Shown piece by piece: positions 1,026 to 21,410 of a DNA stretch of 25,805 nt. The stretch comes from Terramyces sp. JEL0728 (lineage: Eukaryota > Chytridiomycota > Chytridiomycetes > Rhizophydiales > Terramycetaceae), in assembly GCA_027603945.1 (NCBI GenBank), contig JADIIU010000164.1, positions 1-25,805 on the forward strand, given 5' to 3'. The translations under genes were made by a program, and so were the position numbers. Each line of letters opens with the position of its first letter. Positions within the stretch are counted from its first letter, which is position 1. The notes under the pieces were generated by a model, which saw only the letters and a list, made by a program, of their open reading frames with translations, was not told the origin of the DNA and did not search any database.

Positions 1026-2680
1026 ATGAAGTTACCATCCCTGGCTCTCTCGCTGACACTTTTTATCGCATCCTACTTTGTTGTCTTTGGCTTCTTTCAA
1101 TGGAAATGCTATGCTACGCTATGTTCCCAAAACAAAATTGCTCAGCTTCAAATTACTTGGATCGGCATGGGTATTTACTTTGTCGTATGTGGATTGTTTA
1201 TCTTGTCGTCCAAACTTTTTCCACAATCAACAAAAAATCTTTTGGACAAGGAAGTGTTTGTGTTTGCATATTTCAGATCAAAGTTTCAACTATCAACTGA
1301 TTATTTATTCCGCCTCTCTTGGCTAGATTTCATTCACACAGCAATACTGTTTGTCTTGCTTGGTTTGAATTTCAAGTTGTACTTTGATCAATCGTATGGA
1401 AGTTTTCTTCAAAGGGTTTCAAAAAACCCCAATGCATTTTCAGCGTTGCAATTGGATACTGCTTGGTGGAGTAGCAATTATAAGAGCGCTGGGCATTGGT
1501 GTGATGTATTGATTGGCTTAAACTTGCTTCCAATTTCCCGTCATTCATTCATTGCCACTACGCTTGGTTTATCTACAGGCGCATCAATACGCTATCATCA
1601 ATTTACCGGTAATTTGCTAGTTCTTGCTACTGTTTGGCATGGTATTGTAGCGTACGGAATTACCTTGGCAAAATCTTCTTCAAATCCCTGGAGGCAGCTC
1701 TTTTTGTTTGGAACTAGTGGAAACTCTTACGGAAGATACTGTGTACCAATAGGTGTTGGGGCTGCATTAGCTCTGTTCTTGCTTCGTCTAACATCTCTTC
1801 CAATATTGCGCAGAAAAGCATACAGCTGGTTCCTTACTTTGCATTACGCCTTTCTCATTCCATTCCTAACCCTCGCTTCTTTGCACGCTGTTTCCAATTT
1901 TTATTGGGCTTTCCCAGGCATCACACTCTTTGCAGTTGATTTAATCTACCGTTTGTGGAACTATTGGAACACACTCCCAGCAACCGTGACTTTGGAAAAC
2001 GAAGCGGTAGTTCGGCTTGATGTACAATGCAAGAAAGATATCGAACCTGGACAGTTTTTTGCGGTATATGCTCCAAGAATTTCTCGATTCTATAGCCATC
2101 CGTTTAGCGTAGCTGTGATTAATGGTGAAACTGTGTCATTTTTGATCAAAAGACAAGAAACAAACACTTGGACCGACGGATTATGCAAAAGTGCCAGCGA
2201 TATTACTCGAGTTGCCTTGGACGGACCATTCTGCCATTCACCTTTTAATTATCAAAAGCTGACTAGTTTAACTTGCGCTGTGGCAGGATCTGGAATTGCC
2301 GGCGCGTTTGCAATGATCCAAAAGGTATAGATGGGCTAATGTAGATGTGTTCCTTGGGAAAACCTTGTACATTGATTTGGTCAATTAGATATATTTATTG
2401 GTTGGAGCTGTCATTTTTCCAAGAACTTGCTTCTTTAAAGGGAGTGTCCATCAGAGTCCACTATACTGGAGATGAAGAGGAAGCATGGGGAGGTAAATTT
2501 AATTACAAGGATTTCTTTAACCTCGTCATCGGAAGAATAACTGCCAAAGCGTTTGAATTTGACAGGCAAGATAATTCTGGTTTATACATTTGCGGCCCAA
2601 ACAATTTCATGGATCATATCCAAGACATTACCTCTACCATCCCAAGCTATGTTACTCATAGAGAATCATTTGAATTTTGA
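1026..2680 (+). CDS. FRE/NOX-family ferric reductase-like transmembrane protein
   Basis: Two exons, 1026-2324 and 2345-2680, separated by a 20-nt intron (gtatagatgggctaatgtag), give 544 aa. Several hydrophobic segments fill residues 1-310. Two His pairs with 14-residue spacing (H191/H205 and H273/H287) are the expected bis-haem ligands of the ferric reductase domain. HPFS at 358-361 is the FAD-binding motif, GSGIAG at 421-426 the NAD(P)H loop, and CGPNNF at 516-521 the C-terminal nucleotide motif. Splicing joins the glycine loop to the rest of the NAD-binding domain in frame, which confirms the intron. The family transfers electrons from cytosolic NADPH across a membrane to Fe3+/Cu2+ or O2; the substrate is not decidable here. 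A TATA box lies 28 nt upstream and an AATAAA signal overlaps the stop codon. Confidence 0.9.
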
Positions 2681-2685
2681 ATAAA
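2680..2685 (+). terminator. Poly(A) signal overlapping the ferric reductase stop codon
   Basis: The TGA stop (2678-2680) supplies the first A of AATAAA, so the signal starts inside the stop codon. This is one of five such overlaps in the window. Confidence 0.5.
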
Positions 2686-2759
2686 CTACACTGCTACAAG
2701 ATCGATTGATATATATGTGAATCTTTAATTTCTGGTATTAAATAGACTATTAGCCGATC

Positions 2760-3711
2760 TTACTCCCTATATGACATTTTAATCGTGCTAAAATAGCGTT
2801 TTGTAGCCCTTTCTTCAGCCATAGAGGGTTTTTGCTGTTGCGCTTTATCAGTCTGGTTCGCAAACAGACTGCGGTCCAAGATAAAGAAAATTATAGGATT
2901 GAATGACAATGCGCATATTGAAGTGGTTGTTGCTGTGACGTCTATCCAATAAGGCGCTTGAGTGCCAGTGCTATATTGATAGACAAAGACTGCGATACTA
3001 AAAGACCAAGCAATGATGTGTGATATAGTCATCAGAAGACCTGAATTAGCCCTAAAAACCTTTTTTAATCAATAAAAGTTGGAGATGCGCTGCTGTCTCT
3101 GAATCTCCACTGTCCGACTGGCTCAAGGTTTTCATTTTGGTAAAGGAAAGGTAAAATACACTCAGCAAAATCGTGGGTGTTGACACCAATCCAGCAATGT
3201 CCATTGCGCCTATCATTGTGCTCGCAAAACTGCGAGTGTCAAAACTGATCAAACAGTATATCTTTGCACTGTGCAGCACATACCCTTGGCCAGTCCAGAA
3301 CGGTCCCGTACATAGCACGATACAAGCCATCCAAATATTGCAGAGAAACATCAGTTTGGTCTTGTCAGTTAATGCTGGTTTTCGAAATAGCACAATCATC
3401 GTCGGATCCAAAGCTAAACACACAAAACATATTACCGAGATACCCGACAGCGCGTTATCGGCATATCCTTGTATATCACACCCTATATACTCTGTAGAAT
3501 ATCGCCTGTTAATGAAATGAATGGTATTTAATATGAAATTGGTAGTTGCGCGCAAGGTGTCTGCCACTGATATTGATATCATGAACAAGTCAATTTTTTT
3601 CTTTATGAGGATATGGACCCAGATTGTATTCAAAATCATAGCGAGAAGAGATAGTAACGAAATGAAGCCAACTGCGTAATATTGCGAATCATCAAAAGTA
3701 TCGAATTCCAT
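2760..3711 (-). CDS. Rhodopsin-like 7-TM receptor, tandem paralogue 1
   Basis: Exons 3711-3060 and 3040-2760 with a 19-nt intron (gtttttagggctaattcag) give 310 aa. There are seven hydrophobic segments (about 12-35, 42-64, 84-109, 119-140, 163-188, 219-240, 249-272). Class A-like landmarks are visible: an acidic residue in TM2 (D51, in SVAD), C78 before TM3 paired with C153 in the second outer loop, D102 at the end of TM3 in the DRY position, a Trp in TM6, and an NPxxF motif (N265-P266) in TM7. The C-tail is short, basic and polar. It is about half identical to the neighbouring gene on the same strand, so the two arose by tandem duplication. Ligand and G-protein partner are unknown. The intron lies between TM5 and TM6 at a site uninterrupted in the paralogue. 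Confidence 0.8.
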
Positions 3712-5261: not shown

Positions 5262-6513
5262 ATGCGTCTTGCAGTGGTTCTCGCCGCAGCCATTACCAAT
5301 GCGAATGGTTGCAAAGAAACAAGACTTTAAAATTTTAAGAATCTGCAATTCTCTTTTCAATGGAGCACATGAAATTCGTGCACGCGGATTTTACGGAACA
5401 AGAAATAGTCCGTGCCTTTCAAATCGGCCAAAGTATCGTATTACTGTACAGCAAGGTATGCCGAGAACTATTGTACTGCCAGTTGGTATATGCATATCGT
5501 AACTTGGCAAATCGTGCTTTCCACGTCTTACGTAATTCCAATGCCAGAGACTATACCAACATCAGCCATAGCAGCAGTATACACGCCAGGAACAATCTTG
5601 ATGCACATTGGGTTTATATGCAACATTTGTGTGATGTACAAAACACTATCAAAATGGAAGAAACGCGGAACCTGGCCAATGTCACTAAAGTTCCCTTTTT
5701 ACCTGTCAATAACTGATATAATTATGTACACTTCTTCTCTGGTCAATCAGCTGCATGTATTGATTTACCAAAGAATTTGGGAGGGCAGTATGTGCAAATT
5801 TGCTGGTGCGTTCTACGGATTTGCAGCCTTGTTAAACATCCTGACTTTTGCAGCTGGTATTTCATTACTAAAAAGTTACTATGCATACTTATTTCCAAAT
5901 TGTATGGGGATGGAATGTGGATCTTGGGCGATGCGACTGGAAACTGATTTCACTGGTAGTTACTATTACAGGGATAACAACCATAGTGGAATATCCACAC
6001 GCTGGACCCAGCAAATACTGGTGCTATGAAGAGTACCATTGTTTAATACTAGTATGTACAGCACCGACAAGTCAATCGGACTCGCTTCCATAATTAGCGA
6101 AAGTTTGATATTCACATGTATATTATATTTTGCAGGTGCATCAATCTTTCGCATCAGATCGATAGAGCGGGAGAGAGTTGTAATGAATCGAAAACAAGCA
6201 AAGATATCAGTAGTAGCATGCAAAAAAATCCTGACTTTTGTCGTTATTTATTTTATCCAATGGTAAATTGAATTTATTCCAGGACACCCGTTTTGCCTTA
6301 CAATTTATATGCACTGCTAGATCTCTTTCCTGAATGGGCAGCAGCGCTCTGTATTTTGGGTATAAATAGCGGTGGTACAACTTACTGATGATAGGGTTAC
6401 TGAATCTTTTGGGCCTGAGTTACAACGAAAGAAACCGCAAAGAATTAACCCCCGAAGTGGTACTCGAAGCCAAGAATCCAGACGACACTCTTAAAGTTTC
6501 AACAAAATTATAA
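5262..6513 (+). CDS. 7-TM receptor with mini-introns; 5' part and one frame break unresolved
   Basis: An ATG at 5262 opens a signal-peptide-like stretch (MRLAVVLAAAI). The receptor core is clear from about 5590, with TM1-TM3 read in the frame of position 5412. TM4 and the outer loop (SKYWCYED) lie in another frame. Three 20-nt introns then join TM4 to the stop: 6033-6052 (gtaccattgtttaatactag), 6263-6282 (gtaaattgaatttattccag) and 6375-6394 (gtacaacttactgatgatag). After splicing, TM5-TM7 and a polar tail ending at TAA 6511-6513 are continuous. Between TM3 and TM4 (about 5876-5910) the frame changes by one base, and no AG exists there to serve as an acceptor for a mini-intron. The Cys-containing N-terminal region (5310-5590) also needs at least one frame change. 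Either the gene is starting to decay or the assembly has indels. Confidence 0.55.
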
Positions 6514-6578
6514 TTGCAATTAGAAAAGTACTCTTCGTAATTGGATGATTTCACCTCCTATCCCAGTTTACTATGTAT

Positions 6579-7619
6579 TTATTTAATCCATAAATTAGCA
6601 GCCTCGGCAAAAGTATGGATGGTTTTCTTGTCTCCATTCTGATGTACAATCGGAATCATCTTTCCATCAAATTCCAACCCTGACTTACCGAGTACAATCA
6701 AATCTTGCAATCCGTATGAAGCAATAAACAAATCATTCTCATAGTCCAAGCCTATTAATCGTGTTTTTTCTCCTTTCGCTTGGCTTGCTGTGCCCACATT
6801 GAATTTGTCAGTTGTCCAGTAATACAACGGTTCGAGAAAAGCGTGTGTTGCCAGGTACTGGTCATCAAAACAGTCGCCGCCGTAAATGTACTTTAGATAT
6901 TCAATCAGCACACCTGCAGTGGAAATCATTGTCCCAGCATTCAAGTACCTAATCTTTTTGTTGTATGGCGATTCTGGGTACTGGCTCCATAAATGGCCTT
7001 CAGGGTAGCATGCGGTTTCCGCCGAATAAAAAATCTTTGGTCCATTGTATTTCTTTACAAGTTTGTCGTATCGTGATACTATTTCATTTTCATCAAACCC
7101 AGGAGCCAATAGAACATCGTCAGCATCGGACCATATGATGACCCTATCTGTATCGACATTTAATAAATAGTTGTGCAGTATTCTTAACCTGCTTCCCCAG
7201 TGTTGCCTCCACAATGTTCCCAAGCCAAGAACTGTAAATTCAATTCCATTTTGCTCCAGGGACTTTCCAAATGTATTCGTATTATCAACGCAGCTAGTAA
7301 TAAAGGATATCCACTCCAGTTTTCCCTTCTTTAGAGACTTGTTTATTTCACTTTGCGGTAAATTGTCTTGAATAGCTATTGAGTTATTTGAAATAAAGTT
7401 GCTGCACTTTTTGAGAAAAAAGTCTCTCCAAGGTTCAAAAAATGCTTTCCTGCAGCTTGCCAGCTTCTTTTCAATGTATCCGTTCGAGTGGTATTGAGTG
7501 CCTTCCGAGAGTAATTCCATTGACATAATCTGCGGTCGCTTGAAATCAACTACTGCAAGGTAATATACAGTAAATATTCCAATGAGGAGTAGCAGAACAA
7601 TTTGCCTCGTTTTTCTCAT
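6579..7619 (-). CDS. PLOD-like glycosyltransferase, type II membrane protein
   Basis: 346 aa, single exon. A short basic N-terminus and one membrane anchor (about 7-24) predict a Golgi/ER type II enzyme with a lumenal catalytic domain. Motifs match the glycosyltransferase domain of procollagen lysyl hydroxylase/galactosyltransferase (PLOD-like) proteins: a DxD metal/nucleotide-sugar site, DADD at 165-168; ETACYP at 201-206; LNAG at 226-229; DDQ at 252-254; and HQNGD at 326-330 near the C-terminus. No hydroxylase domain is attached. The probable role is transferring a hexose to a secreted or surface glycoprotein; donor and acceptor cannot be read from the sequence. The gene is convergent with the receptor gene to its left and divergent from the 7-TM gene at 7790. 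The poly(A) signal AATAAA (6578-6583) overlaps the stop codon. Confidence 0.8.
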   Translation of the reverse strand: MRKTRQIVLLLLIGIFTVYYLAVVDFKRPQIMSMELLSEGTQYHSNGYIEKKLASCRKAFFEPWRDFFLKKCSNFISNNSIAIQDNLPQSEINKSLKKGKLEWISFITSCVDNTNTFGKSLEQNGIEFTVLGLGTLWRQHWGSRLRILHNYLLNVDTDRVIIWSDADDVLLAPGFDENEIVSRYDKLVKKYNGPKIFYSAETACYPEGHLWSQYPESPYNKKIRYLNAGTMISTAGVLIEYLKYIYGGDCFDDQYLATHAFLEPLYYWTTDKFNVGTASQAKGEKTRLIGLDYENDLFIASYGLQDLIVLGKSGLEFDGKMIPIVHQNGDKKTIHTFAEAANLWIK

Positions 7620-7789
7620 TAAAATAAAGAAACCCGAGGTCCGTTCAGCTATTGGGAAAATATTTAGAAATTACAAACTCGGTAAATGAGCTGCTGATAT
7701 CCGCCATTACCTAACCATGAATACCCGATGGGTTGTATTTACCACAGTCATTTCCTCTGATATCCACGATATTCTTTCCACAAAACAAA

Positions 7790-8725
7790 ATGCAATACAT
7801 GATAGCCCCAATACTATGCAGCATCCTGAATCTACTAGTAATAATAACACTGTTTCAATCTAAAACTGTTTTCGCAACTGAAAACTTGCTGTTGATTCAG
7901 TACTTTGGTGCAAATTTAATCACATCGACCATAATTTCATTACAGGATTACGACTGCTTACACTCTAGCGCAATTAATCTTGTCTCCAGCTTTGTAGCAC
8001 AATTGGTGTTGTTCTGTATTGTCTGCAGGTACATGGCAAGCAGGAAAATTCCAATCATAGTGTGGTCAGTGATATCGTGGTCACCTACGCTTTTCCTATA
8101 CTCTGCATTTCATGCACCAGCAATCTATCAATCATTAGACTCTAGAGAATGCGCAATTACTAATTTGAAGCAAGGTGATTTCTGGTTTATTTTCGAAACT
8201 GTCAGGATCGTGTTTCTCGGAATCACAACGATGATGGCATTCAAAGTTTTGATTTCATTGATATTTTTTAATAGAGAAGTAACAGGACGGCAGAGAATAG
8301 GGATGCTGAAACTATTATCAATTATTCTGTTTGACTATGTGATCTCAATCAACAATTCAGCTTTACATATCTTCCAGGCATTTAATTTCACGAATATTCC
8401 AATGATACACTACCTGCTGGGTATAATAAGATGCCTTCTCGTACCTGTACTGTTTTTGCTGCTACATGAAGGTATCCGGCGCGCATTTGTCCGGGTGCTG
8501 TTCTTCAAGCCAGTGGATAACAGTAAAATCAAACAAAAAGACACTACTCAATATGATATGAAAAAGTCTTCATCCATTGATCAGTTGAATGAAGTCCGGT
8601 CAAGAATTCGACAAGAAATGGATGGATTCAGCCCAATTGGAAAAACTAGCTCTGGTTCTTCGACTCCTAGGAGAGAATATTCGAGTTATGAAACCAAGTC
8701 ATCGCCAAAGAGATTTGAAGTTTAA
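7790..8725 (+). CDS. 7-TM receptor-like membrane protein
   Basis: 311 aa from the ATG at 7790. The frame is open further upstream but only offers a TTG, and TM1 begins right after this ATG. Seven hydrophobic segments are visible, followed by a ~75-residue Ser/Thr/Lys-rich tail, as expected for a receptor with a phosphorylatable cytosolic end. C56 (before TM3) and C121 (second outer loop) could form the usual GPCR disulphide. No DRY or NPxxY motif is clear, so the family is not settled. No intron is needed inside the frame. An ATG at 7717 could be joined to the frame by removing 16 nt, but that is shorter than any supported intron here. An AATAAA lies about 15 nt after the stop. Confidence 0.7.
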   Translation: MQYMIAPILCSILNLLVIITLFQSKTVFATENLLLIQYFGANLITSTIISLQDYDCLHSSAINLVSSFVAQLVLFCIVCRYMASRKIPIIVWSVISWSPTLFLYSAFHAPAIYQSLDSRECAITNLKQGDFWFIFETVRIVFLGITTMMAFKVLISLIFFNREVTGRQRIGMLKLLSIILFDYVISINNSALHIFQAFNFTNIPMIHYLLGIIRCLLVPVLFLLLHEGIRRAFVRVLFFKPVDNSKIKQKDTTQYDMKKSSSIDQLNEVRSRIRQEMDGFSPIGKTSSGSSTPRREYSSYETKSSPKRFEV

Positions 8726-8855: not shown

Positions 8856-9685
8856 ATGAAGAACGATACCAATCTGCTAAGCTATCTAAACAAGCCAGCA
8901 GGTCTAGAATCACACCAATTCTCGAGAGACGAACACCGATTCAATACAGTTTTCCAACCACCACAAACTGCAAAATTGCCCAGAGTGCCAAGAGTAGGCC
9001 AAAACACGAGAAACCACTCTGACCTTGTATTCAAATTCGGGAATAGCCAAGGGTTCAATAGCGAAAAAGATCGGTTTGGAGCAGTGCCGGTTTGTGAGAT
9101 TGAAAAGCATCGCCAGGATTTGAAAAAAGCAAAGATTCAGAACCGGATGGCTTTGAAGCGGTACTCATTCTTAATCCAGTGAATGGCTTAGCCAGATAGA
9201 GCATGAGCGGTGGAACCAAATGGCAATCGGGGTTGAAAAGGAACAGCATTTACTCGAAACCAGACAAAAGAATTCTAAAAGAGGCTCGAGTAGTGTTTCC
9301 TATAACCCAATCACACTAGAGTACTTGTCGAATGACGCCGGTAAAAAGCTACTTCAGGAAGACGCGAAAGCAAAAGTAAAGAAAACTAATATAGCATCGA
9401 TTGGCAATTCGAGCAGCGAGGCTATATGAAAAGAACAATACATTCGATCCAACTCTGTGTGTAGATATTCCTCACATTACTGCTATTACAGTGGATGAAA
9501 AGTGTGCCGGTTTGAAATCGAAAATAATTGCAAAGCACGGGAGGAGAAAGAACGACGATCCATGCACTACAGCAAAGCTGTTGTCAAACATGATTACCAC
9601 TAATCAGGAAGCAGTTATGGGACTAACTGGTGAAGATCCAAGCAAAATCTTTAATGGAAACGTAAGATGGGTGCGAAACCATTAA
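8856..9685 (+). CDS. Conserved-looking soluble protein of unknown function
   Basis: Three exons (8856-9160, 9180-9375, 9395-9685) separated by two 19-nt introns (gtactcattcttaatccag and gtaaagaaaactaatatag) give 263 aa. The protein is hydrophilic and basic, with no signal peptide or membrane segment. The middle is helical and charged (about 85-130), with RREW at the first splice junction. Then comes a block with YNPITLEYL, KxLLQEDAKAKHRLAIRAARLYEKN and TFDPT as its recognisable pieces. That combination reminds me of small flagellar or axonemal proteins with a 'YNPITG'-type motif, but I cannot name a family. Splicing is supported because both frames on either side are long, open and compositionally alike. 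It is convergent with UTP6, with only about 26 bp between the stops. Confidence 0.75.
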
Positions 9686-9711: not shown

Positions 9712-11617
9712 TTATTGCTGCTCTTTAAGCTGTTGATATCTCTGCTCAAATTCTTCAACGTCTCGCACCGATCGTGTGCCTTTCCAATAAACTTGGGCAG
9801 CTCTGGTAGAATCACCGCGATCGAATTCAAATTTAATATGCTGTAACCATACATCTACAGTTAAATAGAATATACCTATATCATTTGACCCACGATGTGC
9901 CAGGTCCCATAATTTGTCTATTTGGGCCAAATCCTTCTTGTTTTGGGTAAAGTTGTCTTGTTCAACAGCTAGAATAGCGAGTAGTACGGAAACAGATCTT
10001 TGTTTAAGGGAAATTAGCTTTTCAGATAATTTTCTAAATTCAGCAATTCCAAATTCTTTTTTCCATTCCAAATATTGCAGTACTACAAGCTCTTCCTCTG
10101 GCGTATTTAAAAAGTGTTTGATTGAAAGTGCCCTTTCGAATAATTCTTCAACATTCATTTCATTTTCAAGCGCAAATCCAATATACGCCTTCCAGATTGG
10201 CAACTTTTCCTCTGTTTTTACAACCTTGATTGCTTGCTCAAACAATTCCACAGAAGGATCAACAGACAACTTTTCATTCCACAGCAATCCCGACCAATGG
10301 TACTTTGATAATGCCAATTCCAAAATCTCTGGATTCTTTTCAGATAGATACCAGCTATGATATAATTCCAGCGGCGCGTTTCCAGATTCATGAGCATCAG
10401 TGTAACATTTCTTTAGCAAAATAGTTAAATATTGCATCTACGATCAGGAAATACCTACCAAATTTTCTTCGTTTACTTTTCTCAATTGATTCGTCAGGAA
10501 TTGTTCGTAGAAACCCCATAGTTTCGGCATAGTCTTTGCCAAGTCATTGTAGGCAGCAACTGTCTTTGATACAGCAACAGGGTACTCTGGATCTTCTATA
10601 TCCAACCCATCCAGGCTTTTCTTGCACCATACATCAGCAGCTTGGACATTCTTTGGGAAATCAGTCATAACCCCTTCATAAATCTCCTTTCGTGCTTCGT
10701 TTGAATCAACATCAAATAACAGATAGACTTTAATGAATTTCAATCGGAATTCTAAATCAGGAATAGCTCTGATGGCGTTTTTGTAGATTGATTTTGGGAT
10801 CAATAAATTTACCAGTGCTTGCTGCATCGGGGTTAATTCTTTTTGCATCATTTCATTGGTGCCATCTTGCTTGGAATGCAGCAATACTTGGTCAATAATT
10901 TCAGCCTTGTCTTGTTCTCCTTCAATAGTGCCAACTTCAACAGAGTCGGTTTGCTTGGTTTGTTCGCCAATGTCGCCGCCCTCCTTGAATAGGATTCTTC
11001 TTCTATCTAATAATTTTTGAATCCAAAGCAATTCCAGCTTGAAATATTCCAACCAGATTTTTTGTTCGTGGGGATTAATACGCAGCGCTCTCTGCAGCAA
11101 CACTCTGGCACTAGTCATATTTGAATTCTCTTCATATTCATATTTAGCGGCCATAATCCAGAATATGCTTTTTGCAGGGTGTAGAGCAATGGCAGTTGCA
11201 AACTGCTTGCCCAAAGTCTTGAAACTTTTTTGCAGTAAACTCCATTCAAAATATTGAGTCCATAGGTGCACATCGCCTTTGAATCTCTTTAAAGCCTGTT
11301 GGTAGAGTGAGTGGATCCTCTTGACGATAGAGTAATCAGAAAGTGTAATACCAGTTTCTTCATTGTCCAAATTATACTTGAGTTTGCGCTTCTTTCTCAG
11401 TTTTTCTAAATTCATTTCAAATTCAATATATCGAAGGTAATCCTGTTTCTTTACGATTTTACGATGAATTTGGTATTCAAAGTCGGTTCTTTTTTTAACG
11501 ATTTGTTTGAGCTCCACCTGGGTTAAGTATTATTACCGGTGTGAACACTTGTCTTTCTTGTAAATCCTGAATCTCTGGGAGCATCTTTTCCAAATGGTAT
11601 TGAACATCGTCAGCCAT
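9712..11617 (-). CDS. UTP6: U3 snoRNP-associated protein 6 (small-subunit processome)
   Basis: Three exons (11617-11537, 11517-10459, 10437-9712) give 621 aa, the usual UTP6 length. Introns are 19 nt (gtaataatacttaacccag) and 21 nt (10458-10438, with a CTGAT branch-like element). The N-terminus, MADDVQYHLEKMLPEI followed after the first intron by ELKQIVKKRTDFEY, is the family signature; the first 27 residues are recovered only by splicing. The body is a series of HAT (half-a-TPR) repeats with spaced aromatic and acidic positions such as LWTQYFEW, FWIMAAKYEYEE and IWLEYFKLE. UTP6 acts in the nucleolus in the UTP-B module of the 90S pre-ribosome, needed for 18S rRNA maturation. Residues about 185-230 form an acidic, low-complexity insert between HAT blocks. 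Confidence 0.92.
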
Positions 11618-12283: not shown

Positions 12284-12862
<579 letters not shown>

Positions 12863-13738: not shown

Positions 13739-13786
13739 TGGTTTTTGAAAAAATAAAGTTGAAAATATTTATTCTATACTGCAAGT

Positions 13787-15016
13787 TTATTTCGTTATCA
13801 AGAATCGAGGCTGGCTTTCTGATTCATCAATGATTTGACTTGAATTGTGAATCGGTGTCATTGGGAAATCAGGATCATCTGCCATTGGATAGCTTTCTTG
13901 AGGAGCTGGGCTAAATACTTCTGCAGCACCTGAATAGGTATTTGTAGGTTGCGGTCGATGCAACCTATCTCTAACATTTGGTCTATCTGTATGTTCTTTA
14001 GCTTGGCTAGCAAGCCATTCTTCAGTGTGCAAATTAGCTACTTCAATATCTTTTCGCGGTTTAATATTTCTAAAGTACATTGCTGCCCCAACAGATACTA
14101 CTGCTACGAATGCTGCAGCTCCTAGGATTAAAGGTACGGTTGGGAATGAAGATTGTGAGGATGGTGTGATTGGAATTTCGTTTGAGCCATTAGAGTTACT
14201 GTTTGTTGAACCTGAATCTCCGTTTATCGTTACGCCGTTTACAGATTGTCCATTAGATGAAGATGATTGAGGTGTTTGTGTTGGTCGTCCAGTTTGCCCA
14301 TTGTTTGAATTCTGATTCTGAGGTACTCCTCCATTGGATCCAGAATTATTGTTTGTGCTAGTATTGGTGTTTCCTGATGTGTTGCCAGAATTGTTTCCTG
14401 ATGTATTGCCAGAATTGCCAGATGTATTGCCAGATGTGTTGCCAGAATTGCCAGATGTGTTGCCAGAATTGCCAGATGTGTTGCCAGAATTGCCAGAACC
14501 ATTTCCAGAACCATTTCCATTTCCTATAGTTGTTCCACCAGCGTTTCCTCCATTATTAGAACCATTTCCGCTTCCGTTATTGCTTGAACCGCCATTACCA
14601 TTACCATTACCTTGACTTCCGCCATCTCCTCCAGACGATATTGGTGGTCCAGTAGCAGTTGGTGGTGGAGATTGAGGTGTAGATGGCGGAGTTGGTTGAT
14701 TAGGAGGAGGCACATTCTTTCTATAATTAGCTTGAATGTACCTAGAACAAGTAACTGCATTTCCATTCTGCTGACAAAACTGCTCATTGTACCCGCAATC
14801 ATAACCAAAACTAGCAGAGTGAGTAATAAAACCCCCAATTTCATTACTAAACAATGTACAAGATCCTGAGCCATAGTTGAACAACTGGCAGTTAGCACCG
14901 CACATTTGATAGCACTCGTCAGCACTCGAAGCAGGAGAGGATGACCCTGCACCAAGCAGGAATTGACGGTTTGCTATTACCGTTGCATGTACTGCTAGTG
15001 GTAGTAGAATAAACAT
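13787..15016 (-). CDS. Stalked surface protein with apple-like Cys domain and one TM (paralogue A)
   Basis: The frame is open for 409 codons from the ATG at 15016, but 14721-14741 looks like a 21-nt intron, leaving exons 15016-14742 and 14720-13787 and a 402-aa protein. Order: signal peptide (1-15); Cys-rich domain (C35, C39, C43, C53, C74, C81, C90) with the apple/PAN-like C-x3-C...C-x-L pattern; Pro-rich neck; about 150 residues of Gly/Asn/Ser/Thr stalk with 21-bp repeats; a single TM (about 290-312, LILGAAAFVAVVSVGAAMYF); a basic stop-transfer RNIKPRK; and a ~90-residue cytosolic tail. It is one of three same-strand paralogues. It is likely an adhesin or contact sensor; the stalk should be O-glycosylated. 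AATAAA lies 6 nt after the stop. Confidence 0.82.
   Translation of the reverse strand: MFILLPLAVHATVIANRQFLLGAGSSSPASSADECYQMCGANCQLFNYGSGSCTLFSNEIGGFITHSASFGYDCGYNEQFCQQNGNAVTCSRYIQANYRKNVPPPNQPTPPSTPQSPPPTATGPPISSGGDGGSQGNGNGNGGSSNNGSGNGSNNGGNAGGTTIGNGNGSGNGSGNSGNTSGNSGNTSGNSGNTSGNTSGNSGNTSGNNSGNTSGNTNTSTNNNSGSNGGVPQNQNSNNGQTGRPTQTPQSSSSNGQSVNGVTINGDSGSTNSNSNGSNEIPITPSSQSSFPTVPLILGAAAFVAVVSVGAAMYFRNIKPRKDIEVANLHTEEWLASQAKEHTDRPNVRDRLHRPQPTNTYSGAAEVFSPAPQESYPMADDPDFPMTPIHNSSQIIDESESQPRFLITK
14433..14495. repeat. 21-bp tandem repeat in stalk of paralogue A
   Basis: Three perfect consecutive copies of a 21-bp unit beginning gatgtgttgccag on the + strand encode, on the minus strand, a seven-residue Gly-Asn-Ser-Gly-Asn-Thr-Ser unit. 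Degenerate copies flank them. The unit is a multiple of 3, so copy-number change keeps the frame and would alter stalk length. Confidence 0.8.
14721..14741 (-). other. Cryptic in-frame 21-nt intron in paralogue A
   Basis: On the minus strand the block begins GTACATTCAAG, then has GCTAAT and ends TATAG. It lies after the last Cys of the ectodomain (TGT TCT AG|A), the same place and phase 2 as the obligatory 21-nt intron of paralogue B (TGT TCA GC|T, 16366-16386). It contains no stop, so it reads as seven extra residues (YIQANYR) if unspliced. That the boundaries and branch-like element match is seen; that it is spliced is inferred. Confidence 0.7.
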
Positions 15017-15263
15017 GAAGGAAAACTATTCTCTTTGGCTTTTACTCGCTCGGCGAAAATAAAACCGAATGGAAACTGACGAATGTGAAAGGTGCAGATT
15101 TTGGACAGAGATATCAAAGGAAATCTGGTCGGAATTCATCGTTTATGCACGTATTTAACGCTGCAACACTCGAATCTCCATTGCATAGTTTTCAGTGCAA
15201 ACCACATAGAGAAACTAGTAATGATATAAATTTCAAAACACATGCTTAAAACAATTTATTCAA

Positions 15264-16694
15264 CTATTGAGGAGTGTCGGCACGAACAATTGGGGTAGCT
15301 ACCATTTTACCATCATCATCACGCACCATTCTATAAGAAACAGCTGGGGATTTTGCAAGAGGAGATGTTCTAGCTTTCTTTGGCGCTTCAATTGAATTTG
15401 GCCTATCGGTTACAAATGAAGTTCCGCTGTTGGAGCTGAATCTACCGTCTGGGTTTCCACGAGCTTGATCTGCCTTTGGATTTCTTGGACGCTGCATTGA
15501 AGTTTCACTTGGAGGTGATCTTGGCTCTGAATCAGATACAATGGGGGAATTTGGTGCAGCAATTGGTACGTTTGCCAATTCTAAATCATCCTTGGAATTT
15601 CTTCTTTTTACGATTGCAAATGCAGCACCAACAAGTAAGACTACTGCTCCACACGATACACCAATAATTAGTGGCAAGTTGAGAGTAGTACCAGCGGAAG
15701 ATGAAGTATCGGCTGAGCCTGGATTTGAGCTATTAAAGTTTGGATTTACATTGCTGTTGCCTCCCCAATTGAAAGAAGTGCCACTATTACTATTACTGTT
15801 GTCTGAATCAACGTGCGATGGTCCGAATCCGAAAGGAGAATCGGTAGAAGATGAAGAATCGGCTGAAGCTGTTCCAGTAGATGCACTATTTCCATTTCCA
15901 GAATTGGAGGTTGTTGATCCACCAGAGGTGCTTCCGTTTGATCCACCATTTCCAGTAGATCCATTTGAGGTTGTAGAACCATTTGAGCCATTTGAATTTG
16001 AAGATCCATTTGAGCCATTTGAATTTGAAGATCCATTTGAGCCATTGGTACCAGAGCTTCCACTTGAAGATCCACTTCCACTAGTGCTTCCAGACCCAGT
16101 ATTTCCATTTGAAGTTCCTCCATTATTTCCAGTTGATGGTGTTCCTGAACCCCCATTTGATGTTGGTGGATTTGAACCGGTATTTCCAGCTGTTGGAGGA
16201 GTCTTTGGGACTACTGGTCCAGGAGCAGTATTTGGGCTAGACGGTGGTGGATTTGGCTGTGTTTTTGGCGGTGACGGTCTAAGGTTAATTGAATAGTACG
16301 GTGTAGGGGGAGGGTTTTGCTTAGGTGGTGATGGAGGAGGTGGTGGTGGAGGAGGTGGAGGAGGACTACCATTAGTAAATCATTACGCTGAACAAGTTAA
16401 ACTCAGCCATGCAAACCCAGTCTGACTGCAGTATTGCGTTCTGTACCCACAATCCTCATTAGCCCATAAAATCAAAGAATAAGAGATTGAACTAGTCAGT
16501 TGGTGATATAAAGTGCATGTGCCGTAGTAGAAAGAGTAATAAACACATTGAGAGTCTTTACCACAAGCGGCTTGACAATCGCCTCCACTGCCGGTGCTGA
16601 GTTGAGAATTCGCATTCCCTGATAGTGTACATTTTCCAAGGTCTTTGAACTGCGCTGTTACAAGTGCAAGCAGGAAGGCTAAACCCAACTGCAT
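15264..16694 (-). CDS. Stalked surface protein with apple-like Cys domain and one TM (paralogue B)
   Basis: Exons 16694-16387, 16365-16300 and 16278-15264 give 462 aa. The ATG at 16694 is preferred; the frame extends only to a TTG further up. Intron 1 (16366-16386, 21 nt, ACTAAT branch-like) is obligatory because the first exon stops within it. Intron 2 (16279-16299, 21 nt) has no stop and is inferred from paralogue C. Order: signal peptide (1-14); Cys domain with C40, C44, C50, C60 in the apple-like pattern; a run of about 12 prolines; Asn/Gly/Ser/Thr stalk with 27-bp repeats; one TM (about 325-347, LIIGVSCGAVVLLVGAAFAIV); KRR stop-transfer; ~110-residue tail. AATAAA lies a few bases after the stop. 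Confidence 0.82.
15979..16046. repeat. 27-bp tandem repeat in stalk of paralogue B
   Basis: Two full copies (15979-16005 and 16006-16032) and a 14-nt partial copy of a unit beginning ccatttgagccatttg encode a nine-residue Ser/Asn/Gly stalk unit on the minus strand. The sequence is unlike the 21-bp unit of paralogue A, so the stalk repeats expanded independently. Confidence 0.8.
16279..16299 (-). other. Cryptic in-frame 21-nt intron in paralogue B
   Basis: On the minus strand the block begins GTACTATTCAA, contains ATTAAC and ends CTTAG. It splits ACA CC|A CCG, exactly as the obligatory 21-nt intron of paralogue C (19029-19049) splits ACA CC|A CCG. With no stop it would add seven residues (YYSINLR) to a pure Pro-rich neck, where they look foreign. 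Confidence 0.72.
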
Positions 16695-16965
16695 TCTATT
16701 CAAAGATTTTTCGCAGTCGTTTCCTCTTTTGAACTGGTTCGGGACCAGTGGCTGGAGATGTTGAAATCAACAGTAACAATGGATCTACCAAGTATTTGGA
16801 GGGCATACAGAGTAAAAGTTTCGTTACGAATTAGCTATCCATTGTATTTGGAGCGATAGCTGCTGTTCAAGAATCAAAAGTCTGTTTCAAAGCACGAGCC
16901 AAGTTCCCTTTTTGGTTTCCCGCTTGTGACCATCTTGGTTTTGCAGTGCACAATAAGATTAGGCA

Positions 16966-17271
16966 GTGATATCCACAATTTTATTAAATCGACAGTTTAC
17001 TAGTTTTACAGTCAAACACAACAGTGGCAAATACAACGTTGATTTAAACGGAATTGCGCTATTCGTTAATGTCCTGGTTGGACTAGTGTATCCTTATATT
17101 ACCAGGTTGAGCATCGGCTATGACAGATATTGTGTTAACATAGGTCAGGTATATCAATGCGGGAAAATGTCCTACTTTTTAACCCTTGCTCAATGTTTCT
17201 CAAAGTGCACAGCATGTCACCTGCACGTGACCACTTGGTGGAAAAAGGATTTTCCAGTTTCGATTCAGTAA
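16966..17271 (+). pseudogene. Possible remnant of a 7-TM receptor (TM3-like fragment)
   Basis: A 101-codon frame without a good ATG (it starts at GTG). It contains a hydrophobic helix followed by LSIGYDRYCVN, which looks like the TM3/DRY end of a rhodopsin-like receptor, and then a Cys-rich part that stops. The upstream frame at 16860-16998 also encodes a hydrophobic helix. No complete receptor can be assembled. It may be a decayed gene or chance. Confidence 0.25.
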
Positions 17272-17422
17272 CAAATAAATTCTATTGTACCTATGCGGAG
17301 AAAAACCGTTGATCTTCCAGCCCCCCGACAGCGTTTACCTCTTGGGTTTGCCCCTATTGTACCAAGAGAAATCAAGGGAAACGTGGAAAAAATAGCAAAA
17401 GAGGGAAAATGGCGGAAAAACA

Positions 17423-17430
17423 TATAAAAA
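17423..17430 (+). promoter_or_regulatory. TATA-like box of the HMG-box gene
   Basis: TATAAAAA lies 38 nt upstream of the ATG at 17468. Seen directly; its role is inferred from position. Confidence 0.45.
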
Positions 17431-17467
17431 AGAACCCAAATTACCCTTCATTATCGCCAGATTCTAA

Positions 17468-18121
17468 ATGAAAACCACAAACGAGCTCTCCAGAAAACTC
17501 TTAAACACTGCACAATCCCTCAACGCAAAGAAACCCTTGAATGCCTTTTTTCTGTACCGATCAGAAATGAAAGACTCGATAATGCAGGAGCACCATACGC
17601 ATAAAGCAAACGAAATCATTAGTATAGCTGCACAGCAGTGGAGAGCGGAAACTAAAGAAACCAAGGATTATTATAAACAAAAATCCAAGCAGCTCTATGC
17701 CGAACACGCAAAAAAGTACCCAGATTTCGTGTGGCCATCAAAAACTAGCAAACAGCAGAAACTGGCGCTAAGAACTACTTTGTTGAAGGTAGTCAACCAA
17801 CTTGGTCCTACTGTTGAATCTCCCACAAGCCTATCTCCTGTCAACCAGATCGGCTCTCCCACACTATCTGATTCGTCACACACCACCCTATCAATGATGT
17901 CCCCACTGCAGCCTAGTGAAGCTGCTAAAGAGTCGCCAAAAGCTTCCCCGTGCCCATCAAACACCACCATTGATGGTTTGGACCAGATTGTGCAGCCATT
18001 GGATTTCAGCTCGTTCTTTCCTCTAGAATACCAGTATACCATTCCAGATCCGTTCCCATTGTACTATAATCCAACCCAGCAGCATATCCAACCGAACCCA
18101 TTTGACTTTTTATTCGATTAA
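17468..18121 (+). CDS. HMG-box transcription factor (MATA_HMG/SOX type)
   Basis: 217 aa, single exon. The HMG box spans about residues 20-92: KKPLNAFFLYR opens helix 1, NEIISIAAQQWRAET forms helix 2, and YYKQKSKQLYAEHAKKYPDF helix 3 and its extension. The RPLNAFxLYR / NxExS.xxxxxWR pattern is that of sequence-specific MATA_HMG and SOX boxes rather than abundant chromatin HMGB proteins. After the box come a basic linker, a Ser/Pro/Thr-rich stretch (about 117-175) and a Pro/aromatic C-terminus, a plausible activation region. In fungi such proteins include mating-type and sexual-development regulators. No mating-locus landmark (for example a second HMG gene or sla2/apn2) is visible, so a MAT role is not claimed. 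A TATA-like box lies 38 nt upstream and an AATAAA (18120-18125) overlaps the stop. Confidence 0.88.
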   Translation: MKTTNELSRKLLNTAQSLNAKKPLNAFFLYRSEMKDSIMQEHHTHKANEIISIAAQQWRAETKETKDYYKQKSKQLYAEHAKKYPDFVWPSKTSKQQKLALRTTLLKVVNQLGPTVESPTSLSPVNQIGSPTLSDSSHTTLSMMSPLQPSEAAKESPKASPCPSNTTIDGLDQIVQPLDFSSFFPLEYQYTIPDPFPLYYNPTQQHIQPNPFDFLFD

Positions 18122-18125
18122 TAAA
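18120..18125 (+). terminator. Poly(A) signal overlapping the HMG gene stop codon
   Basis: The TAA stop (18119-18121) gives the first two bases of AATAAA. The convergent apple-like paralogue C ends at 18153, so the two transcripts' 3' ends must lie within about 30 bp or overlap. Confidence 0.5.
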
Positions 18126-18152
18126 ATATTTAATAATATCTGGTTTATTGAA

Positions 18153-19423
18153 TCAAAAACTGTTTGAAGGATTCATTTCAGCAGGCGATTGGATTGGGGT
18201 AGAAGATTCAGACGCAGATTCAGCAAACGAGGCTTTCTTTGCTGGATTCATATTCAACGTAGAAGTAGCTGTAAATTTGCCGCTATTGAACACATTAGCA
18301 CTTGGTTCTCTAGGACGTTCCAATTGTTCAATAGATGGCTGTTTGCCGGTTTCTTTAGCAACTGGATTGATCACTTCGTTTGAAACTGGCCGTTCTAGTG
18401 ATTTTTGGCTTTGAGTGTCTGAAAGTGATCGCACAGGTGAAACTGGACGAACTGGCTCGTCACGAAGTCTGACTGGTACTTGTCCAACAGATGAGATTTC
18501 TTTTAATGTTCTAGGCTGAACAGATTGCGGTGGATGTGCAAAATCAAGTGTTGGAATGGTTTTTGTTGGTGGTGCTTCCAAATCGCTCTTTTTGGTATGT
18601 TTCTTGAACAAGAATCCAGCACCGACTAGTACCACTACAGCAAATGCCGAGATTCCGATTATCATTGGGAGGCTTGATGTGCTGGATGTTGAGCTGCTCG
18701 AAGTGGATGTGGTTGCATCAGTGTTTGTATTACTGTTGGTATTGTCAGAGTTTATTGAAATGCCTCCAGTTGGGACAGCTTGACCTTGTGTTTGGGATAC
18801 AGTTGCAGACAGTGCAGGTTTGTTGGCTTGCACAGCAATGACTTGTGCATTCGCTGGTGATTGCGGTTTAACAGATGCTAGTGGTGCAGGTGCATCTACA
18901 CTTTGATTAAAATTGGCACTTACATTGTAGTTGGCTGTGACGCAGGTGGATTTCGAGTTTCTGGTGCGGGGTTGTTTGGAATTTGAGGAATAACTGGTCC
19001 TGGTCCTTGAACAGGCTTTGGTGACGGTCTACTGTTAATCCACTATTACGGTGTCGGTTGTGGTTTTGGCTGTTGATTATTTGGGCACGAAATATATCCA
19101 TCAGTGGGGTCGCTGAACCAACCTCTGTCTGTAGTATGAAGAGAACAGCTTGCTCTATACCCGATATCCATATTATTCGAATCCGAAGAAGAAAAGGTAA
19201 TATAGTGGACATTGTACAGGTAACAAGAATTGCTTCGGCGTCCTCCCTTAAAACTGTAGAAATTGCAATCCCATTTCGAAGCACATAATGACTGACATTG
19301 ATATCCTTGGTTTGAGGTCGTGTCGGTAACGTACGGGTCGAATCCATCATCGAATTGCGACGACCCTCCCAAATCGTTCATTTGCGCCTGCACAATTGCA
19401 ATAATTGCTACAAACAACTTCAT
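18153..19423 (-). CDS. Stalked surface protein with apple-like Cys domain and one TM (paralogue C)
   Basis: Exons 19423-19050, 19028-18924 and 18900-18153 give 408 aa. Intron 1 (19029-19049, 21 nt, ATTAAC branch-like) and intron 2 (18901-18923, 23 nt, GTAAGT donor, TTTTAAT branch-like) are both obligatory, since the reading frames stop inside them. Order: signal peptide (1-13); Cys-rich domain with CQSLCASKWDC and CYLY, the same apple-like spacing as paralogues A and B; Pro-rich neck (PKPQPTP|PSPKP); a shorter Ser/Thr/Asn stalk than its paralogues; one TM (about 238-260, MIIGISAFAVVVLVGAGFLF); KKHTKK stop-transfer; and a ~150-residue cytosolic tail rich in Ser, Pro and basic residues. AATAAA lies 3 nt after the stop. 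Confidence 0.82.
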
Positions 19424-19847
19424 TTTTTCTAGTTTCTATTTTCAAAAGCCTTAGGTCCTGCGCTTTTTAAATGGGGATTGGACACAAGACCCTGCCACCG
19501 AAATCAAACTTTTCATTGAAATGAAGAGATTGATAGTGGTGGGAAATGTACAAATGCCATCTGTTGAATACTCTAGAATAATTATTCTTTATTATTCCGA
19601 CCTTATCTTGATTTCTTTGACATAATAAGAATACGGCCAGTTCCCGGGTTTCCCAAATTGACCACTGAAAACACACGGTGTCCGAGCTCGACCGCAATGA
19701 TCATTCTTTAGGAATCACGCTCGCATTTAAGAGTTTGGTGGATAACTTGAAGGTTGAACGCGACTCTTAGCTCATCAAAGCGCAAGGCAACGAACAAGAT
19801 ACAGACATAAAAATGGTTTATTCAACTCCTGACACAATCCCAGACTC
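19424..19847. other. Intergenic, no gene seen
   Basis: 424 bp between paralogue C and the SH3-like membrane protein gene, both on the minus strand. A TTTAAAAAG stretch about 50 nt upstream of the paralogue C start may serve as its TATA element. No RNA gene or repeat recognised. Confidence 0.5.
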
Positions 19848-20714
19848 CTATCGCTGATTCAAGTCCTTCAACAAGATAATTTGCAACCGGCTCTGGTACT
19901 TTCTGTACATCCTAGAACTGTAATCAACTAAAGCTTGGTCGCCGCAAATAATAAATAAATCCCCATCTTCAAACTTTCCGTTCTGCATCACAGTCTCCAA
20001 CTCTGCAATTGGATACAAATACACGTTATGCGGATACCATCTCCTGCAGTACTTGATTCGTTCAAAATAGCAAGTTTCCTTCAATGGCACATCCGGATCA
20101 TAAAACAAGACAAATATCATTTCAATCGGTGGTAATTGAATATTTACCAACGGAACCATCCCCATCACATCGTCATTAATCATACAGTAGCAATATCCGT
20201 TGTAAAAATGTCGGAGAATCAATATCTCGTCTTGGTAGTCTTGTAAAATTTCAAAGTCTTTTAAATCTGTGGTTACGGTTTTGATATTGGTTTGCATCAA
20301 ATACCTATCCAGTAAATCAAAAAAAGCTTCTGTTCCTTGCGATGAAGACGAAAACAGTACATGTTTTTGGTTGCTAATGTTGAATAGCGGTGGTGCAGGA
20401 GGAATGGAAATCGGTATTACTGGTCCGAGATCAACAATATTATCTGAGCTTACAGTCTCCACTGCAACTGTATTTTGATCTAGGGGCGGATCCGGCTTCT
20501 TAGCTTCAACTGCTACTATCGAAGGAACAGCTGTTTTCGTTTTCATTCTTTTCATAATAATATACCTCGCAATCAAAAAGTGAATAATCAGCAGCAGTAG
20601 GAAAATCACAATACTGTAATAGATCGGATTTGATATTGGACTAGTGACGGCTGCTGTTGGTGTGATTTGTATTGATCCAGTTGGTTGTGCATATGACATT
20701 AGATTGAAATTCAA
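19848..20714 (-). CDS. Single-pass membrane protein with an SH3-like cytosolic segment
   Basis: 288 aa. A short extracellular N-terminus of about 30 Thr/Pro/Ser-rich residues without a cleavable signal is followed by one TM (33-52, IVIFLLLLIIHFLIARYIIM), a basic KRMKTK flank and a Pro-rich linker (65-110). Residues about 145-195 resemble an SH3 fold: DEILILRHFYNGYCYCM, then GMVPLVNI, paralleling the 'DEI...F.DGW...G.VP.NY' core, although the usual ALYDY and second Trp are poorly kept. The last 90 residues (GDLFIICGDQALVDYSS) are globular and unrecognised. An earlier stretch, VLFSSSSQGTEAFFDLL, superficially resembles a flavodoxin phosphate loop. It may be a membrane-anchored scaffold. Divergent from the REV1-like gene, sharing 153 bp. 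Confidence 0.6.
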   Translation of the reverse strand: MNFNLMSYAQPTGSIQITPTAAVTSPISNPIYYSIVIFLLLLIIHFLIARYIIMKRMKTKTAVPSIVAVEAKKPDPPLDQNTVAVETVSSDNIVDLGPVIPISIPPAPPLFNISNQKHVLFSSSSQGTEAFFDLLDRYLMQTNIKTVTTDLKDFEILQDYQDEILILRHFYNGYCYCMINDDVMGMVPLVNIQLPPIEMIFVLFYDPDVPLKETCYFERIKYCRRWYPHNVYLYPIAELETVMQNGKFEDGDLFIICGDQALVDYSSRMYRKYQSRLQIILLKDLNQR

Positions 20715-20867
20715 ACTTTTAATTTACACACAGACATTCTTGATGGTATAATATTATTTGAAATGAAGGAGATTTAAATCCAACCACCTCACTTTTTCCA
20801 AACGACTTGGGATCCAGCGAACGAGATATCAAGTAATCCAATTTGGACTGTCCGAACTCAATCTAAA

Positions 20868-21397
20868 ATGGCATTCAATGGCTACAACCACTACTTTCAA
20901 GTAAAAAGGAGAAAGCTACTGGATCAACGAAACCAAAAGAACAGTGACTTGTTTGCAGGGCTGCACTTGTTCCTCGACGGCTACATCCCCAATATATCAC
21001 CAGAAACAATTACAGAAAATGGCGGCAGAATACGAGGCTCATTCTCAAAATGCACTCACATAATAGCCAATCAAGTACTTTTAGTTAATGCAAGATGACA
21101 TTACAAAAACTAAATGCTGTGAAAAAACCAATGGTGAATTCAGATTGGCTGGTTGATAGTTTAGAGTGGTGCGAATCTAGGGATTTTCCTACCGATGATG
21201 ATTTACAATTGGTGTGTGATTTCCTCAAAGAACTAGTTGATTCTTTTGAAATGGACTGCTGCGCGAGAATACTATTGCTCATGCGTAATCGACTGATTAC
21301 AAGGAATGGAAAGAGTGCTGAAAGGAAGCAGGTGTTGTTTAATCAAATCTATCATAATGTAAATGAGGCTATATATCAAAGTAAATTGTATTTTTAA
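20868..21397 (+). CDS. REV1-like mini-protein: BRCT plus CTD-like tail, no polymerase core
   Basis: Exons 20868-21074 and 21095-21397, with a 20-nt intron (gtacttttagttaatgcaag), give 169 aa. Residues 1-25 (FNGYNHYFQVKRRKLLDQ) match the segment that precedes the BRCT in REV1 proteins. The BRCT follows (about 27-97): LFAGLHLFLDGY, GGRI at 52-55, CTHIIA at 62-67, and the hallmark W87 in SDWLVDSLEW. It passes directly into a ~65-residue helical tail (DLQLVCDFLKELVDS...QVLFNQIYHNVNEAIYQ), which I judge similar to the REV1 C-terminal domain that binds REV7 and Y-family polymerases. The whole ~700-residue catalytic and ubiquitin-binding middle is absent. The frame is intact, so this is not simple debris. 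The BRCT assignment is firm; the CTD similarity is from memory of the family. Confidence 0.7.
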
Positions 21398-21410
21398 CCC
21401 TTTGATACAA

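What the first reader, a model, noticed from the sequence alone, without database searches (positions are those of the whole stretch)
2325..21094. Genome-wide miniature spliceosomal introns of 19-23 nt with a compressed branch site
Seventeen introns in nine genes can be reconstructed: five of 19 nt, six of 20, five of 21 and one of 23. All are GT...AG; about fifteen carry CTAAT, TTAAT, TTAAC or CTGAT with the presumed branch A only 4-7 nt from the intron end. Each removal restores a family-consistent protein (C2H2 linkers in the zinc-finger gene, the UTP6 N-terminus, the ferric reductase NAD domain, a REV1 BRCT). Introns this short are known from chlorarachniophyte nucleomorphs and some ciliates; fungal introns are normally several-fold longer. 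With so little room, branch site and acceptor recognition must be nearly fused, implying unusual spliceosome geometry or altered U2AF/SF1-type factors.
Basis: partly seen in the sequence, partly recalled or inferred. Interest (0 to 1): 0.93.

Follow-up and report, generated by a model that had tools for sequence, protein, structure and literature searches.

The report
Fungus with twenty-base introns, sometimes chained
Conserved genes of this fungus, very likely a chytrid, are interrupted by GT...AG stretches of about 20 bases, in places two to five of them end to end with no exon between, and these are predicted to be spliced out as some of the shortest introns known, likely by an ordinary spliceosome.

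Summary
The window is a whole contig of a 15.0-Mb genome, very probably Terramyces sp. JEL0728, a Rhizophydiales chytrid. In 225.8 kb sampled from 21 contigs, 278 of 322 called introns are 18-25 nt (mode 20); decoy dinucleotide pairs give no such peak. The public UTP6 protein is 100% identical to my model with three mini-introns removed; RPN6, TOP1 and U2AF35 show no gap at the junctions that align. Geometry is tight: 14-15 nt from 5' G to branch A inclusive, then 5-6 nt. The proposed cause (altered U2AF/SF1) is not supported: SF1, both U2AF subunits and U2 snRNA look ordinary, PRP8 is present; U1 and U6 were not found (inconclusive). Such lengths are known in nucleomorphs, heterotrichs and mikrocytids; I saw no report from a fungus, or of such arrays, in the listings searched. 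No RNA data were available.

The parts
2325..2344 (+). mini-intron, 20 nt, ferric reductase-like gene (1026-2680)
   Evidence: retained copy runs into stops; removal gives a 544-aa ORF with Ferric_reduct and FAD_binding_8 matches; CTAAT, 5 nt after the A
3041..3059 (-). mini-intron, 19 nt, receptor-like membrane protein by eye (2760-3711)
   Evidence: removal joins two ORFs into 310 aa, stop at 219 if retained; CTAAT, 5 nt after the A
6033..6052 (+). mini-intron, 20 nt, gene around 5.4-6.5 kb
   Evidence: gene-finder call; TTAAT; no full hand model
6263..6282 (+). mini-intron, 20 nt, same gene
   Evidence: gene-finder call; no YTRAY
6375..6394 (+). mini-intron, 20 nt, same gene
   Evidence: gene-finder call; CTGAT
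9161..9179 (+). mini-intron, 19 nt, gene 8856-9685
   Evidence: frame restored; stop at aa 108 if retained
9376..9394 (+). mini-intron, 19 nt, gene 8856-9685
   Evidence: frame restored to 263 aa
9855..9875 (-). mini-intron, 21 nt, UTP6 (9712-11617)
   Evidence: public protein 100% identical to the model without it
10438..10458 (-). mini-intron, 21 nt, UTP6
   Evidence: as above
11518..11536 (-). mini-intron, 19 nt, UTP6 N-terminus
   Evidence: as above; Boothiomyces model has a gap over this site
12431..12449 (+). mini-intron, 19 nt, C2H2 zinc-finger gene (12284-12862)
   Evidence: restores a finger and linker; stop at aa 53 if retained
12553..12572 (+). mini-intron, 20 nt, in the HTGERPF linker
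   Evidence: restores the linker, 179-aa ORF; no YTRAY
14721..14741 (-). mini-intron, 21 nt, cysteine-rich surface protein by eye (13787-15016)
   Evidence: motif only; multiple of three and stop-free
16279..16299 (-). probable 18th mini-intron, 21 nt (gene 15264-16694)
   Evidence: same adjacent bases as the intron at 19029 in a paralogue; stop-free
16366..16386 (-). mini-intron, 21 nt (gene 15264-16694)
   Evidence: stop at aa 103 if retained; CTAAT
18901..18923 (-). mini-intron, 23 nt (gene 18153-19423)
   Evidence: 408-aa ORF once both introns are removed; stop at 125 if retained
19029..19049 (-). mini-intron, 21 nt, same gene
   Evidence: as above; TTAAC
21075..21094 (+). mini-intron, 20 nt, REV1-like gene (20868-21397)
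   Evidence: BRCT over and REV1_C just under Pfam cut-off in the spliced protein; stop at aa 76 if retained

Best explanation
Conserved genes of this genome, very probably that of the chytrid Terramyces sp. JEL0728, carry GT...AG blocks of 18-23 nt that are most likely U2-type introns removed by an essentially ordinary major spliceosome. Shown from sequence: the length peak, the GTA start, a YTRAY motif with 5-6 nt after its A and 14-15 nt from the 5' G to it, restored conserved proteins, and genes for SF1, both U2AF subunits, PRP8 and U2 snRNA. Inferred: that A is the branch point; the T-rich stretch between donor and branch serves as the pyrimidine tract, since the tail has no room for one; recognition is by intron definition. 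Some longer interruptions are built of two to five complete units with AG|GT junctions and no exon between. These would be removed unit by unit, in sequence (zero-exon recursive splicing) or independently, and one array probably grew by tandem duplication of a 20-nt unit.
For: Length peak without splice model: GT-AG 19/20/21 nt = 21/28/14, five decoys 0-5 per length. Converged: 278 of 322 introns are 18-25 nt (6, 71, 110, 65, 19, 5, 1, 1). 206 of 278 are not multiples of three; 53 of the other 72 hold an in-frame stop. Branch: 48 of 70 introns called without splice model have YTRAY with 5-6 nt after the A; shuffled mean 2.8, highest 7 in 200. Proteins: UTP6 identical to the public protein; RPN6 five of five junctions at no gap; TOP1 six of ten blocks lie in the aligned part, none at a gap; U2AF35 has three GT-AG introns of 19 nt and a probable GC-AG one of 22 nt. 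Haplotype pair C111/C199: of five internal indels, two of 1 nt fall inside predicted introns, three between genes, none in predicted exons. Arrays: 12 matches versus 0 for the reversed pattern and 15 versus 1, 25 distinct places; a chain of two or more units in 20 of 24 fetched and in the 25th. PSMB5, PSMA6 and TBCE-like align without gap across the junction, HDAC6-like in one of its two matches.
Against: No RNA evidence. U1 and U6 were not found; the two sub-threshold U6 hits lie inside a predicted membrane-protein gene. 69 of 278 introns have no YTRAY with 12 nt or fewer after its A; some may be false calls. 44 of 322 calls are 42-383 nt; I checked few of them, and one, 45 nt in RPS3, looks real, so there is no absolute ceiling. 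Four of 24 array loci gave no chain (L050, L053, L056, L063); L049, L051, L052 and L057 are weak; two pairs are haplotype copies; the first unit printed for L060 is coding sequence. The second HDAC6 match has 1- and 2-residue gaps near the junction; the SPX match is weak, E 0.004. Two of the 27 pattern matches repeat an array already counted. The converged splice matrix favours its own motif; only the 70 flat-prior calls are free of that. My first U2AF35 join was wrong at its first intron.
Confidence: 0.88

Rival explanations
1. The mini-introns are real, but each abutting array is one ordinary 39-99 nt intron excised in a single step from first donor to last acceptor; inner GT/AG sites are unused.
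For: First donor and last acceptor of each array are themselves valid; a 45-nt single intron exists in RPS3; the public TOP1 protein is consistent with removal of the whole 64-nt block.
Against: Each unit has its own donor and acceptor at 16-24 nt spacing (16 only in the weak L049) and most have their own YTRAY; spacers of 3, 6, 9 or 12 nt gave 0 composites against 2 for zero spacing in 225.8 kb.
Confidence: 0.25
2. The blocks are assembly or sequencing indel errors that break reading frames.
For: Draft assembly in 231 contigs; no reads were available.
Against: Errors would not give a 20-nt length peak, GT...AG ends, a spaced YTRAY and gap-free junctions; reversed and decoy controls are low.
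Confidence: 0.01
3. The blocks are removed by another process: translational bypassing, DNA elimination or non-spliceosomal RNA processing.
For: Short in-gene insertions removed by such routes exist elsewhere (recalled, no call).
Against: GT...AG with YTRAY, the kind of motif that pairs with the U2 GUAGUA box, plus genes for branch and acceptor recognition proteins.
Confidence: 0.02
4. The introns need altered branch or acceptor recognition factors.
For: U1 and U6 were not found; only 63 of 278 introns have G at +5. Stentor, with 15-16 nt introns, has non-conserved branching-factor regions (PMC9505925 abstract). Branching factors and SF3B1 were not examined here.
Against: SF1, U2AF65, U2AF35 and U2 snRNA look ordinary.
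Confidence: 0.1

Closest known systems
Chlorarachniophyte nucleomorph introns (18-21 bp; PMC10245619, passages read)
   Same: Same length class and narrow range.
   Different: There in a relic endosymbiont nucleus with a tiny genome; here the 15-Mb genome of a probable chytrid.
Stentor coeruleus introns (15-16 nt; PMC9505925, abstract and section 4 parts 1-2)
   Same: GU...AG, commonest intron starts GUAAUUUUU, near-fixed branch position, 5-nt tail, all five snRNAs and a conserved PRP8.
   Different: Here introns are about 5 nt longer with a clear YTRAY; Stentor's branch region has no strong consensus.
Mikrocytid introns (16-17 nt; PMC10245619, passages read)
   Same: Very short, uniform, conserved sequence.
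   Different: Parasites with much reduced spliceosomes and 224 introns in 179 genes of M. mackini; here 278 short introns in 225.8 kb and SF1/U2AF kept.
Zero-length-exon recursive splicing in flies and mammals (PMC5126111, passages read)
   Same: Juxtaposed acceptor and donor sites within an interruption.
   Different: Described for long introns; here each segment is about 20 nt and is a full intron.
Stwintrons of other fungi (PMC9024468, PMC12403724; listing and abstract starts only)
   Same: Complex fungal introns needing consecutive splicing.
   Different: Those are nested, one intron splitting another's donor; here units abut and none is interrupted.

Membership tests
U2-type spliceosomal introns | GT...AG ends with branch motif | tested here: met
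   48 of 70 flat-prior calls with YTRAY and 5-6 nt after its A, shuffled mean 2.8
U2-type spliceosomal introns | removal restores conserved proteins | tested here: met
   UTP6, RPN6, TOP1, U2AF35, PSMB5, PSMA6
U2-type spliceosomal introns | major-spliceosome components encoded | tested here: inconclusive
   PRP8, SF1, U2AF65, U2AF35, U2 snRNA found; U1 and U6 not found; others not sought
U2-type spliceosomal introns | lariat excision in RNA | not testable with these tools
   no RNA data
Ultrashort-intron genomes | narrow length range at or below about 25 nt as the main class | tested here: met
   278 of 322-25 nt in 225.8 kb; the sample is 1.5% of the genome
Zero-length-exon recursive splicing | AG|GT junctions with plausible sites on both sides | tested here: met
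   27 pattern matches versus 1 in reversed controls; chains in 20 of 24 fetched loci
Zero-length-exon recursive splicing | stepwise removal seen in RNA | not testable with these tools
   no RNA data
Stwintrons | an internal intron interrupts a splice element of an outer one | tested here: not met
   in the eight arrays laid out by hand the units are complete and abut

The most novel reading that the evidence does not exclude
Introns in this fungus are quantised: the spliceosome accepts almost only about 20-nt units, so longer interruptions grow by adding whole units head to tail, by tandem duplication or by evolving internal AG|GT sites, and are removed one unit at a time through zero-length exons, up to five in a row.
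Probability: 0.5. Interest if true: 0.92.

Novelty: new variant of a known kind. Interest (0 to 1): 0.82.

Why it matters
A probably culturable fungus (JEL numbers are culture-collection numbers; PMC7537106, abstract start) with apparently ordinary branch and acceptor recognition proteins and introns near the lower size limit would let one ask what sets that limit in a lineage with better-studied relatives. The abutting arrays offer natural tests of intron definition, of recursive splicing at 20-nt scale and of how introns multiply. Gene models are also affected: of three public Terramyces proteins compared here, UTP6 agrees with my model, while RPN6 and TOP1 skip an exon and read into introns, TOP1 ending before its conserved C-terminal part.

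Tried and rejected
ARAGORN and Rfam on the window: nothing. U1 by Rfam, U6 by Rfam, by a recalled sequence and by pattern: no credible hit; the two U6 hits score below the gathering cut-off inside a protein gene, and the pattern gives 1 match against 1 in its reversed control. A second copy of window 5900-25805: only the last 1.2 kb matches at 98-100%, besides a 67% stretch and a 55-base piece. First UTP6 and zinc-finger models were out of frame and replaced. A 57-nt intron called in L015 I read as a false fusion of two genes. A 15-nt intron called in SF1 I do not trust. The first unit printed for L060 is coding (the piece with it kept matches PSMA6). U2AF35: an 18-nt GT-AG first intron does not keep the frame; a 22-nt GC-AG one does; the query had three wrong or extra residues at its N-terminus, outside or at the edge of the match. 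My scans looked for GT-AG only, so other GC-AG introns are missed. One search has a useless first row through my error; I read only its other rows. Unit similarity: of eight arrays only L060 shows duplication (1.0 among three units); the others lie within random pairs (mean 0.44, 99th percentile 0.74).
Full report
WHAT AND WHERE. The window is G000:C164, 25,805 bases, in an assembly of 15,016,339 bases and 231 contigs. The best public match to its UTP6 gene is 'U3 snoRNP protein [Terramyces sp. JEL0728]', 614 aa, on a contig of 25,805 bases, 100% identical. RPN6 and TOP1 models from L016 and L018 likewise lead to Terramyces proteins on contigs of 176,437 and 165,781 bases, the lengths of C15 and C17. 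The RPN6 record differs from my model at three residues besides the mis-modelled parts, perhaps another haplotype. That the genome is Terramyces sp. JEL0728, a Rhizophydiales chytrid, is an inference, but a strong one. A CFAP91 gene fits a flagellated fungus.

CHECK OF THE WINDOW. The best case is UTP6: three introns, one 614-aa frame, identical to the deposited protein. So the deposited annotation already holds some of these introns; I found no text that describes them.

IS IT CHANCE? I wrote a simple gene finder (coding score per frame, explicit intron transitions) and ran it on the window plus 20 stretches of 10 kb, one from each of contigs C1-C20 (225,805 bases, 1.5% of the genome). With flat length prior and only the end dinucleotides required, lengths 18-23 hold 70 GT-AG introns, against 5, 7, 10, 20 and 16 for five decoy pairs; at a stricter penalty 32 against 4-9 for 12 decoys. 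Lengths of 28-80 show no GT-AG excess: 70 against 82-110. Trained to convergence, 278 of 322 introns are 18-25 nt, mode 20, and all 21 stretches hold some. The other 44 are 42-383 nt; among the few that I examined, one is a false fusion, one is the TOP1 array and one, 45 nt in RPS3, looks real. Of the 70 flat-prior introns, 64 start GTA and 48 have YTRAY with 5-6 nt after its A; shuffling the interior gives a mean of 2.8 and a maximum of 7 in 200. In the converged set, whose splice matrix favours the motif, 202 introns have YTRAY with 3-9 nt after the A: 181 have 5 or 6, and 175 have 14 or 15 nt from the 5' G to the A inclusive. T is 42% between donor and branch against 28% in coding sequence.

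INDEPENDENT TESTS. RPN6: five introns, none at a gap in alignments to fly and human subunits. TOP1: ten blocks, six in the aligned part, none at a gap. U2AF35 itself has three GT-AG introns of 19 nt and a probable GC-AG intron of 22 nt; its protein matches S. pombe U2AF23 over 188 residues with two 1-residue gaps, neither at a junction. Contigs C111 and C199 carry two versions of one locus: of five internal indels three lie between genes and two, of 1 nt each, lie inside predicted introns; none is in a predicted exon. Those two would shift the frame if the blocks were translated.

MACHINERY. SF1, U2AF65, U2AF35 and U2 snRNA are present and look ordinary; PRP8 is present by its PROCN domain, not compared further. 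U1 and U6 were not found by several searches; the tool warns that such an empty answer shows nothing, and I leave this open. On this evidence an ordinary major spliceosome is the simplest reading, with the pyrimidine tract upstream of the branch (inferred).

ABUTTING ARRAYS. The 64-nt interruption in TOP1 splits exactly into GT...AG blocks of 22, 21 and 21 nt. Two whole-genome patterns for a mini-intron end followed at once by a complete mini-intron gave 12 matches (reversed control 0) and 15 (control 1), at 25 distinct places. Of 24 fetched loci, 20 form chains of two or more units; the 25th lies in L020, in a gene whose start resembles YOP1/REEP (name recalled). Four gave none, four more are weak and two pairs are haplotype copies, so the safe number is smaller. 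Clear cases: PSMB5, 20+21+21 (no gap over 71 residues); PSMA6, 21 plus three identical copies of one 20-nt unit (no gap over 92 residues); HDAC6-like, 20+20 (no gap in one match, small gaps near the junction in the other); TBCE-like, 20+21 (no gap at the junction); GID4-like, 19+20 (Vac_ImportDeg; gene name recalled). Longest: an SPX-like gene, 19+20+20+20+20 (weak match, E 0.004). Leaving any unit in breaks the frame or adds a stop in 31 of 31 combinations (SPX-like), 15 of 15 (L042), 7 of 7 (PSMB5), 15 of 15 (PSMA6), 3 of 3 (HDAC6-like), 3 of 3 (GID4-like), 6 of 7 (TOP1) and 2 of 3 (TBCE-like). As a control, units separated by 3, 6, 9 or 12 nt occur 0 times in 225.8 kb, against 2 with no spacer. 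Two arrays in 225.8 kb would scale to roughly 130 in the genome, with wide error.

RELATIVES. Public Boothiomyces macroporosus models have gaps over two of three Terramyces intron sites in UTP6, and in TOP1 a 4-residue insertion at the array site and missing segments next to two other intron sites. Of two Globomyces UTP6 models, one is complete at the first intron site and one has a gap there.

COMPARISON AND NOVELTY. Introns of 15-21 nt are known from heterotrich ciliates, mikrocytids and chlorarachniophyte nucleomorphs (PMC10245619, passages; PMC9505925, abstract and section 4 parts 1-2). A survey of 644 fungal genomes calls Cryptococcus introns, mean 63 bp, relatively short (PMC8476143, passages). 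Searches of the open PMC library listed nothing that reports this by title or abstract start. For some searches every match was listed (3, 6, 4); the others showed only the top 5-20 of 29 to 126,693, and subscription papers are not held. The one genome paper I tried (DOI recalled) was not available. The class is known; the host lineage and the arrays are the new part.

Noticed in passing
G000:C30:14620-14980 (L060): A PSMA6 gene holds three identical head-to-tail copies of a 20-nt mini-intron, which points to tandem duplication of an intron.
   Followed up: yes
L006, 45-nt block in an RPS3-like gene: A single 45-nt intron with donor GTAAGT and TTCTAAT near the acceptor; a minor class of longer introns may exist.
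   Followed up: partly
L033 (G000:C4), first intron of U2AF35: A probable 22-nt GC-AG mini-intron; my scans looked for GT-AG only.
   Followed up: partly
P0001, P0199 (public Terramyces RPN6 and TOP1): Deposited models skip an exon and read into mini-introns; TOP1 stops before its conserved C-terminal part.
   Followed up: yes
L036 and L037 (G000:C199 and C111): Near-identical pair with introns of 21 versus 20 nt; the assembly seems to hold both haplotypes in places.
   Followed up: partly
window 24624-25805: Contig tail is 100% identical to C51 and 98% to C223, so it is repeated or an unresolved overlap.
   Followed up: no
G000, whole genome: U1 and U6 snRNA genes were not detected although U2 is clear: missing from the assembly, divergent, or interrupted.
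   Followed up: partly
window 13787-19423, minus strand: Three cysteine-rich, low-complexity, single-TM proteins by eye, two sharing an intron position.
   Followed up: partly
window 17468-18121, plus strand: Open frame that looks like an HMG-box protein (by eye; no family search).
   Followed up: no
window 21411-24518, minus strand: Two long open frames in tandem (487 and 508 aa), similar and membrane-receptor-like by eye.
   Followed up: no
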